A DNA stretch of 32,369 nucleotides, from the IMG/VR virus record IMGVR_UViG_3300030099_003039, positions 1 to 32,369 of that record. One strand, 5' to 3'. Below are positions 1 to 32,369 of the stretch, piece after piece (within the stretch, counting starts at the first letter, position 1; every line of letters begins with the position of its first letter). The notes under the pieces are model-generated. The model ran no database searches. It was not told the origin of the DNA and worked only from the letters and a program-made list of their open reading frames with translations. Source of the DNA: a virus. The position numbers and the translations under genes were made by a program.

Positions 1-98
1 GCGATGAGCCAAGGACTTGAAGGTCGAAAGACGAAGCGTAGAAGCAAAAAAGGATCGGAGGAGAACGACGAATCAGCCATTCAGGACTTGATCGCAAA
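1..98. repeat. Terminal direct repeat (contig closes into a circle), left copy
   Basis: Bases 1-98 are identical to 32271-32368; only the very last base of the window (32369, t) differs from its counterpart (99, c). The reading frame of the tail chaperone gene runs through the join without a break, so this is best read as the overlap of a circular assembly. The unit length is 32,270 bp. It could instead be a short physical terminal redundancy, but its place in the middle of a gene argues against a cos or direct-terminal-repeat end. Confidence 0.95.
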
Positions 99-423
99 CT
101 CATCCGCTGAGAAGCTGAAAACGATGGCTGGCTTGAAAGATGCAATCGTTGCGGCGGGGCTGATCGCTGTGATCAATCCAGATACCGGAGCCGTGGAAAA
201 AGTGAAGTGCACGCTCAAGTCTGAGCATTCAGATGCGCAGAACGGAGTCATCTGGGTTGGCGCTATTCCCAATCACATCGCAGACCAGTTGTTTAGTGAG
301 ATTCTTGATCTAAGCACGGATGGAGGCGCAGCTGTAGACCGGCTGCGAGCCTTTCGAGGAAAATCCGACCAGTTTGCTGGTGATCGACCAGATAGCCAAA
401 CGCTACGGCAAACTGCCGAGTGA
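1..423 (+). CDS. Tail assembly chaperone, C-terminal part (gene split by the circle join)
   Basis: This is the continuation of the gene that starts at 32148. The frame enters at base 1 (codon gcg) and runs to tga at 421-423, giving a 181-residue protein when joined (41 residues from the right end, 140 here). The product lies between the tail tube gene (31119) and the tape measure gene (573), the position of lambda gpG and its relatives, which coat the tape measure during tail assembly. The sequence is charged near the join (about residues 44-62) with no transmembrane segment. The family is assigned from position and from the overlapping second frame (see 356-562); I do not recognise a specific sequence motif in this part. 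Confidence 0.72.
   Translation, partial: AMSQGLEGRKTKRRSKKGSEENDESAIQDLIANSSAEKLKTMAGLKDAIVAAGLIAVINPDTGAVEKVKCTLKSEHSDAQNGVIWVGAIPNHIADQLFSEILDLSTDGGAAVDRLRAFRGKSDQFAGDRPDSQTLRQTAE
349..358 (+). other. Candidate +1 ribosomal frameshift site
   Basis: In the zero frame the codons are gcc ttt cga gga. A tRNA-Phe on UUU can slip one base forward and pair perfectly with UUC, and the next zero-frame codon, CGA, is usually slow to decode. The upstream limit is set by the tag stop at 335-337 in the second frame and the downstream limit by the zero-frame stop at 421. No better +1 or -2 slip site is visible between them. Most tail chaperone frameshifts are -1, so this would be one of the less common types. 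Confidence 0.5.
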
Positions 424-562
424 AGTTTTGGAGTTGGATATTTGGGAAATGTCGCTCGCGTTTGCTTGCATCCAGCAGGCAGATGCGACGGCTGCGCAGT
501 TGATGAAAAAGATCAATGCGGATTCGATGCCAGTGTTCCCCGTGGTAGTGCTTAGAGACTGA
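356..562 (+). CDS. Frameshifted C-terminal extension of the tail assembly chaperone (gpGT-like)
   Basis: A second frame, open from 338 to the stop at 560-562, overlaps the end of the chaperone gene and lies +1 to it. It has no ATG and no ribosome binding site at its head; only a TTG at 374 is available. Its product contains IAKRYGKLPSEVLELDIWE, which resembles the T part of tail chaperones of other siphophages. Fusion at the UUU-C site (352-355) would give a protein of about 227 residues against 181 unshifted. In the known systems the minor shifted product is needed at a fixed ratio and bridges the tape measure and tail tube. The stop lies 10 nt before the tape measure start. The shift itself is inferred. 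Confidence 0.65.
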   Translation, partial: EENPTSLLVIDQIAKRYGKLPSEVLELDIWEMSLAFACIQQADATAAQLMKKINADSMPVFPVVVLRD

Positions 563-572
563 GGTTTTCAAA

Positions 573-3140
573 ATGGCTGAAAAAGACGTCATCAAATATC
601 TGATAAAGCTGGAAGATCAAATGTCAGCGCAGATGGCTTTGACGTCTTCCCGGGCAGATGAGTTGAGCGACCAGCTCCGCGAACTGACCAAAGAAAACAA
701 AAAAGGAAAGAAAAGCGACAAAGAGCGAAAAAGCAGTGTCGAACAGCTGGCGAAAGGATTCAAACTTGCGGCGGTTGCTGCTGCCGCTGTTGGCGCTGCT
801 TTCACCGCGATGGGTGGCTTTGCAATCAAGACAAGTGCAAATCTTGAATCGTTTGAAACACGACTGGGTGGACTGCTCGGTGGTTTGGATAAAGGAAAAG
901 CGCGAGTCAGAGAACTGTTTGAGTTGAGCGCATCGACTCCGTTCAGCATCAACGGACTGGTTGAGGCAGAAGCAACGCTCGAGGCATTTGGTGTCAATGC
1001 GACCAGAGTGCGTGGCGGAGTCATGGACCTCGCTGGCGCTATGGGCATGGACGTCACCGAGGCAGCAAACGCTGTTGGAAAAGCACTGGCGGGAGGCGCA
1101 GGCGCAGCGGACCAACTACGTGAGAAGGGCGTGCTCGCTATGGTCGAGGTCACGGCTGGAATGTCAACAGCCGAGATGTCAGCGGACCAGTTTCGGCAGG
1201 CGCTTGTTCAGACGCTTGAAACCAATGAAAAGATTGCTGGTGGAACAGCGAAGCTGGCCACCACGTTCAGTGGTCTATTCTCCACCATGACCGACCAGTT
1301 TACGGTGTTCGCTAAAGATGTGGGTGATGCAGATCTTTTTGCTACAGCGAAAGCATCGATGGTCGTGCTGCTTGACCTCTTAGAGAAAAATAAGGAGGCT
1401 GTCGGTGGAATGGCATCCGCGATCGGTGGAGGGATGTCCAAAGCAATCGTGTTTATGATTGATGCGTTTTTCCGTTTTGCCGCATTGATTCAACAGACTC
1501 GAGAGGGCTTTTTGCAGATGCGGGCGATCATCAAGATGCTCGCTCTTGCGATGACGGAGTTTGTAGTCAGCGCAATCGAAGGTCTGGGACGGCTCCCGTT
1601 GATTGGACCCAAAATAAAAGAGGCAATGGGTGGTGCGCTGGCCGCTTCTAATGCTGAAATCAGTAGAATGAATAAAGAGTTTCTCGATCTTGGAAACGGT
1701 ATCGAGGATGCACAGCAAAAACAGAAGGCGTTTCTGGAAACAGGACAGCAGGTCGTCACTGACATTGAAGCGATGGCATCGGGCTTCCAGAAAGCAGCGG
1801 ACGCTGCGGCAGACATTGAACCACCAGAAGGTTCTGACGCAATCATGACGATGGTTGGTATCGACAAAAAAGCGGTGGCAGATGCCAAAAAAGCAGCCAA
1901 AGAAACGGAGCAGGCAGCGAACAAGCTTGAGGCGTTCGGACGAAAGATGGGTGGCCTTCGTGAGCAGTTTCGAGGCGCTGCGATGGCAGCGGACGGAAAC
2001 GCGAAAGCGTCGGAAAAACTACAGCTGAAACTCGATAAGATGGCTCGACAGTTTGCAGACGCAAAAGCGCAGGCTGAAAAGTTGGGTCCAGAAGCGGTCG
2101 CTGCGTTCCAAGAGATTGAGGCTGGAATGGTTGCGTCGATGAGCGCAATCGCTGCTCAGATACCTCAAATGCAAAGGCAGGAAACAGCGCAGGCTATTGG
2201 ATCAGGGATGCAGGCTGGCGCAGATTTTCTATCTTCTGGTGGACTGTCAGCGCTGGGTGCCGCTGGACCGGTTGGAGCAGGAGCGGCCAGCATCATTGGG
2301 CTCGGTCAGCAGGGTGATCAGGCATTTGATTCAGCGGTCAAAGAACTGGCATCAGAGTTGGCTGAAGATCGTCAGAAGGCACTGGAGGCAGAGCGTGCGG
2401 CTGCGGAGGCGAAGGGAGTTTCCGAGTCGCAGCTGGAAGCAATGGGTCTCGGCAAAGAGGACATCAAAGAAGCTGGAAAAGTCACTGAAGGGGACATCAA
2501 AGTTGCAGAAGGGCAAACGGATAGAGGCGAGGCGATGGCTGGCGTTGTTACCGAAGCGGTCAAGGGAGTGATCGAAGGTATCAGGTCAATCGTAGCGGGG
2601 CTGCCAGATATTCTTGCTGAGTTGATTCCTATGCTACTCATCGATCTGCCTACATCCCTGATCGCTGTGTTGCCGACGCTGATCGAGAAGCTGATTCCTG
2701 TACTACTGTTCGAACTGCCGAAAGCGATATTCTTGATGCTGGTGAAGCTGATACCGCGTTTGCTGACGATGCTTTTCCGCGATCTGCCGACAGCAATTAT
2801 CAACGGCATGGTGAACTGGTGGAGAAACGTCTGGAATCAGATCAAAGACTTTTTCAGCTTTTCATTCCAGACTGGTGGCTACGTTCCCAGAACGGGTATG
2901 GCCCTCGTCCATCAGGGTGAGCGAATAATACCGTCCAACGGTGCTGGGACCGGCACAGCGACGGCTCGAGGTCTTGGCGCGTTTGCTGGTGGTGGTAAAT
3001 CGTCCATCACAATAAATACCGCTGTTGTCGATCCAGATTCCATTCCCACTTTGGGCAGGCTGCTCGAGCGCGACCTTGGTGCGCACGGACGGGAAGAGAA
3101 CGATTTATTCGGACGGCCATCGCCGTTTACAACGTTGTAG
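573..3140 (+). CDS. Tape measure protein
   Basis: 855 residues, sited directly after the tail chaperone. A coiled-coil, Lys-rich start (about 1-65) is followed by an Ala/Gly-rich hydrophobic stretch (about 66-85) and a region around residues 90-220 that matches the usual N-terminal domain of lambda-like tape measures (ETRLGGLLGG, ASTPFSINGL). Hydrophobic segments at about 270-350 and 670-745 are typical of these proteins and may insert into the host inner membrane. Near the end is a GGYVPRTG...HQGERIIP motif common at tape measure C-termini. By the rule of about 0.15 nm of tail per residue, the tail would be roughly 125-130 nm long; this is inference. The start at 573 is preceded by gagg with fair spacing. 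Confidence 0.93.
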   Translation: MAEKDVIKYLIKLEDQMSAQMALTSSRADELSDQLRELTKENKKGKKSDKERKSSVEQLAKGFKLAAVAAAAVGAAFTAMGGFAIKTSANLESFETRLGGLLGGLDKGKARVRELFELSASTPFSINGLVEAEATLEAFGVNATRVRGGVMDLAGAMGMDVTEAANAVGKALAGGAGAADQLREKGVLAMVEVTAGMSTAEMSADQFRQALVQTLETNEKIAGGTAKLATTFSGLFSTMTDQFTVFAKDVGDADLFATAKASMVVLLDLLEKNKEAVGGMASAIGGGMSKAIVFMIDAFFRFAALIQQTREGFLQMRAIIKMLALAMTEFVVSAIEGLGRLPLIGPKIKEAMGGALAASNAEISRMNKEFLDLGNGIEDAQQKQKAFLETGQQVVTDIEAMASGFQKAADAAADIEPPEGSDAIMTMVGIDKKAVADAKKAAKETEQAANKLEAFGRKMGGLREQFRGAAMAADGNAKASEKLQLKLDKMARQFADAKAQAEKLGPEAVAAFQEIEAGMVASMSAIAAQIPQMQRQETAQAIGSGMQAGADFLSSGGLSALGAAGPVGAGAASIIGLGQQGDQAFDSAVKELASELAEDRQKALEAERAAAEAKGVSESQLEAMGLGKEDIKEAGKVTEGDIKVAEGQTDRGEAMAGVVTEAVKGVIEGIRSIVAGLPDILAELIPMLLIDLPTSLIAVLPTLIEKLIPVLLFELPKAIFLMLVKLIPRLLTMLFRDLPTAIINGMVNWWRNVWNQIKDFFSFSFQTGGYVPRTGMALVHQGERIIPSNGAGTGTATARGLGAFAGGGKSSITINTAVVDPDSIPTLGRLLERDLGAHGREENDLFGRPSPFTTL

Positions 3141-31118: not shown

Positions 31119-32117
31119 ATGGCTACATCTTCATATTTTGGACGCAACTCCTTCGTGGGTATTGGACCGGAATCCACATACGGTACAGCGGCTGCGGAAG
31201 CTGCTATCACGCGACCGATCATCAGCTGCACGATGTTGCGACAGATCGAAAAGGTTGCGCGGCCTAACCTCCGAGTCTCTGGTGTCGCTGGGCTACGCAA
31301 AAAACACTACATCACCAAAGATGCCTCCACAGGTGTGCTCGAGCTGGAGACTACTTACGACAACTGCGGGTATTTTTTCAAAGCAGCGCTCGGTGCATCG
31401 GCAACATCAGCCGGTACTCCCAACACCCACACATATACGATGGGCGACGTCCCAATCGAAGGGAATACGTTGTTTCTGCAACGAGGTACTGGCGACAACT
31501 ATGAGCGTTTTGAAGGCGTAGTGGTCAACAACCTCACGTGCTCTGTCGCTGCTGGTGAGCACATGACAATGAGCCTTGATCTGATTGGTGAAACCAGTTC
31601 ATCGTCATCAGGCAATGCGCGGCACGACAGTCCGTCGCTTTCTTTCACAGATCCAACGAATGAAAACCTCGTGCTGCATCACCATGCCGGAACACTGTCA
31701 TATCGAAGCCAGACGCTCACTCTGGTCGACTTTGAGTACAAGATTGAAAACGGACTGTCCGATCGTATGCGGCTCGGATCACTCGTAACCAAGCAGCCTG
31801 TCCAGTCAGACTTCAGAAACTGCACCATGACGTTCTCGTTTGAGACGGATGATACGACATATCAGAAGTTTATTAGCGATGAGGAGGGCGATGCTATCGT
31901 CATTTTCAACAATGGACTGTCCAGCGGAAATGAGCGGGAAATGAAGTTTTCACTCAACAACGCTTACATCGAATCGTACACCGATGAGATTTCAGAAGCC
32001 GGTTTGATACTTGCTACTGTGACTCTGAGAGCCCAAGGGGATGGCACCAGTGGGCTTGCGCTCGGAACACAGATTGAAATCAAAAACGAAGCAGCCAGCG
32101 CGGTTCATTCTGGTTGA
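31119..32117 (+). CDS. Major tail tube protein
   Basis: 332 residues. Start MATSSYFGRNSFVGIGPESTYGTAA and the pattern LEVETxxD-like LELETTYDNCGYFFKAALG, VNNLTCSVAAGEHMTMSLDLIGE and FEYKIENGLSDRM are typical of tube proteins of this phage type. The protein stacks in rings around the tape measure to form the tail. The position before the chaperone and tape measure genes confirms it. Confidence 0.82.
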   Translation: MATSSYFGRNSFVGIGPESTYGTAAAEAAITRPIISCTMLRQIEKVARPNLRVSGVAGLRKKHYITKDASTGVLELETTYDNCGYFFKAALGASATSAGTPNTHTYTMGDVPIEGNTLFLQRGTGDNYERFEGVVVNNLTCSVAAGEHMTMSLDLIGETSSSSSGNARHDSPSLSFTDPTNENLVLHHHAGTLSYRSQTLTLVDFEYKIENGLSDRMRLGSLVTKQPVQSDFRNCTMTFSFETDDTTYQKFISDEEGDAIVIFNNGLSSGNEREMKFSLNNAYIESYTDEISEAGLILATVTLRAQGDGTSGLALGTQIEIKNEAASAVHSG

Positions 32118-32147: not shown

Positions 32148-32369
32148 ATGGGACAACTACTCGCGGCAATTGAAAACAGTGCAATCAAAGAGATCGATAT
32201 CGGTCCAATGCGATGGCGCATCAAAAAAATATGCAGCGCGGACTTGGCATCCGTAGGTCACGCTGCACTGGCGATGAGCCAAGGACTTGAAGGTCGAAAG
32301 ACGAAGCGTAGAAGCAAAAAAGGATCGGAGGAGAACGACGAATCAGCCATTCAGGACTTGATCGCAAAT
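32148..32369 (+). CDS. Tail assembly chaperone, N-terminal part (gene split by the circle join)
   Basis: ATG at 32148 with aaggag 7 nt upstream. The frame runs off the right end and continues at base 1. The first 41 residues (before the repeated part) include GPMRWRIKKICSADLASVG. The 30-base gap from the tail tube stop holds no further gene. See the entry at 1-423 for the joined protein and at 356-562 for the shifted product. Confidence 0.78.
   Translation, partial: MGQLLAAIENSAIKEIDIGPMRWRIKKICSADLASVGHAALAMSQGLEGRKTKRRSKKGSEENDESAIQDLIAN
32271..32368. repeat. Terminal direct repeat, right copy
   Basis: Exact copy of bases 1-98. It lies in frame inside the chaperone gene that starts at 32148, so joining 32270 to 1 restores one continuous coding sequence. 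The mismatch at the last base is most simply a read-end or assembly error. Confidence 0.95.

What the first reader, a model, noticed from the sequence alone, without database searches (positions are those of the whole stretch)
338..423. Predicted +1 frameshift at UUU-C in the tail assembly chaperone
The chaperone gene and a second start-less frame lie +1 to each other and overlap by 86 bases. The second frame's protein looks like the T extension of tail chaperones. UUU-CGA at 352-357 lets tRNA-Phe slip to UUC and is the only good site in the overlap. Most known chaperone shifts are -1; +1 is rarer. A -2 shift would reach the same frame but I see no matching slip site.
Basis: partly seen in the sequence, partly recalled or inferred. 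Interest (0 to 1): 0.72.

Follow-up and report, generated by a model that had tools for sequence, protein, structure and literature searches.

The report
Forward ribosome slip in tail-chaperone gene
A phage tail-assembly gene almost certainly makes a second, longer protein by having some ribosomes skip one base at the sequence UUU-CGA; the same UUU-CGN site is kept in all 13 related viruses found and in 15 of 17 sampled phages of Mycobacterium, Gordonia and Nocardia, so it looks like a widespread forward-slip signal rather than a one-off.

Summary
The chaperone ORF (32148-423 across the circular contig's joint) and a start-less ORF (338-562) are +1 to each other, overlap by 86 bases, and lie between the tail tube gene and the tape measure gene. 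Thirteen distinct lineages from IMG/VR, with the common part down to 37% identical to the window, all keep in-frame TTT_CGN at this spot (12 CGA, 1 CGC). Protein conservation changes frame at this site. The slip TTT is the only one of 142 invariant-residue columns in chaperone plus tube that uses one codon in all 11 lineages tested. Three lineages, the window included, have no start codon between the last +1-frame stop and the site, which excludes a separate upstream start. A fold search led to annotated tail assembly chaperones of actinobacteriophages; 15 of 17 sampled have in-frame TTT_CGN followed by a conserved +1 extension, at a position that aligns with the window's. UUU_CGN is the +1 motif proven for influenza PA-X. 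+1 chaperone shifts are known, and a few actinophage records annotate a +1 join, so this is a new variant of a known kind. What may be new is the conserved motif. No expression data exist here.

The parts
32148..32369 (+). 5' part of the tail assembly chaperone (G-type) ORF, ATG at 32148; runs across the circular joint (32271-32369 repeats 1-99)
1..423 (+). rest of the frame-0 chaperone ORF, stop TGA 421-423; product 181 aa
   Evidence: phrog_4336 tail assembly chaperone E 0.0097 (weak); fold hits to tail assembly chaperones
352..357 (+). +1 slip site UUU_CGA (P site UUU to UUC, A site CGA)
   Evidence: 13/13 lineages TTT_CGN; single-codon column, 1 of 142
353..562 (+). +1-frame extension: Phe shared with the slip codon, then 68 aa EENPTSLLVIDQIAKRYGKLPSEV...VVLRD, stop 560-562
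   Evidence: 68 aa in 11 of 12 complete lineages, 70 in L045; conserved from the slip on
338..423 (+). 86-base overlap of the two frames
323..353 (+). possible 5' stem-loop abutting the slip site (GAGGCGCAGC / GCTGC..GCCTT); good in most of the main clade, absent or weak in L033, L044, L045, L046
   Evidence: function inferred only
31119..32117 (+). tail tube protein gene upstream
   Evidence: PF18906 E 1.8e-24
573..3140 (+). tape measure protein gene downstream
   Evidence: PF20155 E 9.6e-8, below the gathering score

Best explanation
The gene makes two tail assembly chaperones, as lambda G and GT do. Most ribosomes read frame 0 to the stop at 421-423 and give the 181-aa G-type protein. A minority, with tRNA-Phe on UUU (352-354) in the P site and the slowly filled CGA codon in the A site, slip forward one base so that tRNA-Phe pairs with UUC (353-355). 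They then read GAG GAA AAT and so on to 562, giving a 227-aa GT-type fusion (..RLRAF-EENPTS..). By analogy, the G part binds the tape measure protein and the T part recruits tail tube subunits; the ratio of the two matters for tail assembly. Shown here: frames, synteny, conservation, site. Inferred: slippage itself, its rate, and the assembly role.
For: 13/13 lineages keep TTT_CGN although the E-site codon varies (GCC, TCG, TCC, CGA, GGG, AGC) and the common part falls to 37% identity. The amino-acid change point is at codons 0 to +2 relative to the slip. In the upstream 60 nt all 20 frame-0 third positions vary; after the site variation follows the +1 frame's third positions. Slip TTT is the only single-codon column of 142. 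The extension is 68 aa in 11 of 12 complete lineages. In the window, L044 and L045 there is no start codon between the +1-frame stop and the slip. tRNA-Phe cannot re-pair after a -2 move in any lineage (E-site codons; for the window). Fold search of the frame-0 model gives annotated tail assembly chaperones: Mycobacterium phages Madruga 1.0e-4 and Predator 2.4e-4, and others. Fifteen of 17 sampled actinophage chaperones have in-frame TTT_CGN with a +1 extension conserved from the slip on. Profile comparison aligns the FR slip dipeptide of both groups (prob 64.6, E 6.2e-5). UUU_Ynn is reported as especially prone to +1 slippage in bacteria (PMC5009743), and UCC_UUU_CGU is the mass-spectrometry-proven PA-X +1 site (PMC3498833).
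Against: No expression data. CGA is not rare in this phage (commonest Arg codon), and in-frame TTT_CGN occurs 9 times elsewhere against 8.1 expected, so the bare motif is not avoided; efficiency is probably low or needs context. No conserved 3' structure was found. The T part has no significant Pfam or PHROG match. No host is known.
Confidence: 0.93

Rival explanations
1. The second ORF is a separate protein started inside the overlap (TTG 374 or GTG 380) or upstream, translated on its own or by coupling.
For: TTG 374 and GTG 380 exist with GAGGA at 356-360 upstream. Most relatives have an ATG at -32 in the +1 frame.
Against: The window, L044 and L045 have no start between the +1 stop and the slip. 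TTG 374 is CTA in L036 and is not conserved. A start there would drop the conserved F, E and P residues. Actinophages of clusters D1 and D2 have the +1 frame open only from -5.
Confidence: 0.03
2. The same frame is reached by a -2 slip, or by a +1 slip at another codon in the overlap.
For: -2 and +1 lead to the same frame; Mu uses -2 (PMC5009743).
Against: No codon in the overlap re-pairs after -2. In all 13 lineages the -2 codon for tRNA-Phe would be CCU, CGU, GAU, GGU or GCU. Protein conservation changes frame at TTT_CGN only.
Confidence: 0.03
3. A sequencing or assembly indel splits one in-frame gene.
For: Metagenomic contigs; the window's ends lie inside this gene.
Against: The same offset is present in 13 divergent lineages and in isolate genomes of actinophages. 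No in-frame fused homologue was found.
Confidence: 0.005
4. Transcriptional slippage makes mixed mRNAs.
For: It would also join the two frames.
Against: The invariant run is TTTCG with only three T; no long homopolymer.
Confidence: 0.01

Closest known systems
Lambda gpG/gpGT and the conserved tail assembly chaperone frameshift of dsDNA phages (Xu et al. 2004, as reviewed in PMC5009743)
   Same: Gene between major tail and tape measure; short product plus a frameshifted longer product; slip near the end of the first ORF.
   Different: Lambda shifts -1 on a heptamer; here +1 on a tetramer. No sequence match to lambda G or T was found.
Tail assembly chaperones of actinobacteriophages (Predator, Damien, Patience/Madruga, DrLupo, Benzema, Troll4, Hawkeye, Yikes, DumpTruck, Fowlmouth, Indlulamithi, Papyrus, Djokovic, LittleFella)
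   Same: Second ORF +1 to the first; in-frame TTT_CGN at an aligned position; fold match of the common part.
   Different: Extension longer (102-132 aa), A-site codon CGC or CGT; other hosts. Some records annotate a +1 join (Madruga, Fowlmouth, Papyrus), most list two genes. Aikoy and Nocardia P3.1 lack TTT_CGN.
UUU_CGN +1 frameshift class: influenza A PA-X UCC_UUU_CGU, amalgaviruses, fijiviruses (PMC3498833, PMC9559581)
   Same: [quoted passage not shown] L033 even has UCC_UUU_CGA.
   Different: Eukaryotic RNA viruses and 80S ribosomes; in PA-X the E-site UCC matters, here the E-site codon varies.
HSTV-2 (haloarchaeal virus) predicted +1 chaperone shift (PMC5009743, PMC8211752)
   Same: +1 shift proposed in the same gene role.
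   Different: Archaeal myovirus; its slip sequence was not examined here.
prfB (RF2) +1 frameshift
   Same: Bacterial +1 slip of a P-site tRNA.
   Different: RF2 uses CUU_UGA with a stop in the A site and a close internal SD; neither is present here.

Membership tests
G/GT tail assembly chaperone pair | Lies between the major tail (tube) gene and the tape measure gene | tested here: met
   PF18906 upstream, PF20155 downstream; in the relatives the chaperone follows a tail tube gene
G/GT tail assembly chaperone pair | Two overlapping frames, the second without its own start, joined near the end of the first | tested here: met
G/GT tail assembly chaperone pair | Sequence or fold relation to known chaperones | tested here: met
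   phrog_4336 E 0.0097 weak; Foldseek to annotated chaperones E 1e-4 and weaker, model pLDDT 62; hhalign to the actinophage profile prob 64.6, E 6.2e-5. No Pfam or PDB match
G/GT tail assembly chaperone pair | Fusion protein made at a fixed low ratio; required for tail assembly | not testable with these tools
   needs expression and genetics
UUU_CGN +1 frameshift class | P-site UUU_C in frame | tested here: met
   13/13 lineages
UUU_CGN +1 frameshift class | A-site codon CGN | tested here: met
   12 CGA, 1 CGC; 15 of 17 actinophages
UUU_CGN +1 frameshift class | Restricted E-site codon (UCC in PA-X) | tested here: not met
   GCC, TCG, TCC, CGA, GGG, AGC, ACC, ACG, GAC, CCC, CCG, TTG seen. This limits the claim of membership in the PA-X class proper, not the claim that the site works like it
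UUU_CGN +1 frameshift class | Direction and site proven by junction peptide | not testable with these tools
   mass spectrometry needed
[quoted passage not shown]
   A site CGA; frame-0 stop 72 nt away; GGAGG ends about 25 nt upstream of UUU

The most novel reading that the evidence does not exclude
UUU_CGN is an ancient, conserved +1 frameshift signal of one tail-chaperone family spanning uncultivated dsDNA phages and many actinobacteriophages. It is the prokaryotic counterpart of the PA-X class, and in part of the family it is boosted by a stem-loop that refolds just behind the ribosome.
Probability: 0.65. Interest if true: 0.7.

Novelty: new variant of a known kind. Interest (0 to 1): 0.6.

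Why it matters
+1 sites are hard to spot; a 2024 survey tool states that no general motif for forward shifts has been identified (PMC10885494). A UUU_C tetramer followed by a CGN codon that holds across divergent phage chaperones gives a usable motif, explains split annotations in sequenced isolates, and offers an easily tested bacterial system (M. smegmatis phages) for a slip class so far described for eukaryotic viruses.

Tried and rejected
Separate internal start: rejected. -2 slip: rejected. 3' stimulatory structure: none conserved. SD stimulation: GGAGG lies too far upstream and is also coding. Rare A-site codon: CGA is the commonest Arg codon in the window genes. A first change-point score that used raw BLOSUM sums pointed 12 nt upstream of the slip because it rewards identical Cys and Pro in a run of invariant DNA; a distance score on more lineages removed this. 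One DNA pattern scan was mis-specified and found nothing. Cellular genomes gave no relatives. PDB sequence and fold searches gave nothing. T-part profiles of the two phage groups match only weakly (prob 5.7, E 0.0067).

Full report
What is there. The window is a circular IMG/VR virus contig whose ends overlap by 99 bases with one mismatch. Across the joint lies an ORF, 32148-32270 plus 1-423, 181 aa, followed in the +1 frame by an open frame 338-562 without ATG in the overlap. Upstream is a tail tube gene (PF18906, E 1.8e-24) and downstream a tape measure gene (PF20155, E 9.6e-8, under the gathering score). This is the place of tail assembly chaperones. The frame-0 product alone gives a weak PHROG match to a tail assembly chaperone family (E 0.0097).

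The site. In the overlap only UUU_C at 352-355 lets the same tRNA pair again after a +1 move; no codon allows a -2 move. The joined product reads ..VDRLRAF-EENPTSLLVIDQIAKRYGKLPSEV...

Relatives. Scans of IMG/VR with the extension, the common part, a 17-base DNA pattern and tail tube profiles gave 13 distinct lineages, counting the window. All keep an in-frame TTT_CGN: CGA in 12, CGC in L046. The common part is 37-73% identical to the window. The extension is 68 aa in 11 of 12 complete lineages and 70 in L045. The codon before TTT varies freely, so the motif is not just a conserved DNA block.

Tests. (a) Scoring where protein conservation passes from frame 0 to +1 puts the change at codons 0 to +2 from TTT. 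(b) Upstream all 20 frame-0 third positions vary; after the site the most variable positions are the third positions of the +1 frame; the slip bases do not vary in the ten lineages compared. (c) Of 142 invariant-residue columns in chaperone and tube over 11 lineages, only the slip Phe uses one codon; other invariant Phe columns mix TTT and TTC. These counts do not correct for shared ancestry, but the control columns share that ancestry. (d) In the window, L044 and L045 the +1 frame has no start codon between its last stop and the slip, and no start downstream is conserved. A separate T protein is therefore not the shared mechanism.

Wider family. AlphaFold on the frame-0 protein is only moderate (pLDDT 62), yet Foldseek on viral models puts annotated tail assembly chaperones of Mycobacterium, Arthrobacter and other actinobacterial phages among the best hits, with E 1.0e-4 (Madruga) and 2.4e-4 (Predator). 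Their genomes show the second ORF +1 to the first in the records with two listed genes; where a joined CDS is annotated, its length implies a skip of one base (Madruga, Fowlmouth, Papyrus, Aikoy). Fifteen of 17 sampled have in-frame TTT_CGN followed by a conserved extension (F-A-K/R-N/D.. in most); Nocardia P3.1 has TTT_CCT, and Aikoy appears to use AAA_A. In those phages TTT is a minority Phe codon in the genes sampled (78 TTT to 250 TTC). Profile comparison of the two chaperone groups aligns 136 columns with the FR slip dipeptide matched (prob 64.6, E 6.2e-5, one comparison).

Mechanism. tRNA-Phe reads UUU and pairs better with UUC. A waiting CGN codon in the A site gives time to slip. UUU_Ynn is reported as especially prone to +1 slips in bacteria (PMC5009743). 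UCC_UUU_CGU was proven by mass spectrometry for influenza PA-X at about 1% (PMC3498833). Lambda needs about 30 G to 1 GT (PMC5009743), so a low rate would suffice. A stem-loop just upstream of the slip is well formed in most of the main clade (86% of cells paired over 13 lineages, limited covariation) but is weak or missing in L033, L044, L045 and L046. Upstream hairpins next to the E site raise +1 shifting on 70S ribosomes (PMC6321510), so it may be a clade-specific stimulator; this is a hypothesis. CGA is not rare in this phage and the bare motif is not avoided, which points to low efficiency or dependence on context.

Known and new. Chaperone shifts of -1, -2 and +1 are known (PMC5009743). 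+1 joins are already annotated in a few actinophage records. I found no paper in the library that names UUU_CGN as a phage chaperone signal (open-access papers only). The verdict is a new variant of a known kind, with good evidence for a conserved motif and none yet for expression.

Noticed in passing
window 1-99 and 32271-32369: Terminal repeat of 99 bases with one mismatch at the last base: the contig is a circular assembly opened inside the chaperone gene.
   Followed up: partly
L015, L016, L027, L037, L032: Several related contigs also end inside or next to the chaperone gene (54-57 nt past the slip, 234 nt into the gene, or at the tube end). Probably assembly breaks; cause unknown.
   Followed up: no
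L028:5599-6290 (Serratia phage Serbin MK608336): Two 'hypothetical' genes between the major tail gene and the tape measure look like an unannotated chaperone pair with the second frame -1 to the first.
   Followed up: partly
L047-L063 (actinobacteriophage records): Most records list the two chaperone frames as separate genes with unsupported starts; only some give a joined +1 product. Re-annotation with TTT_CGN as the join is suggested.
   Followed up: partly
L059 (Mycobacterium phage Aikoy) near 1211-1225; L061 (Nocardia phage P3.1): Exceptions to the motif: Aikoy's +1 join seems to use AAA_AGT, Nocardia P3.1 has TTT_CCT.
   Followed up: partly
-32 relative to the slip in L029, L031, L033, L035, L036, L038, L040, L041, L042, L046: An ATG in the +1 frame (within GATGGAGG or GATGGGGG) precedes the slip in most relatives but is closed off or absent in the window, L044 and L045.
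   Followed up: yes
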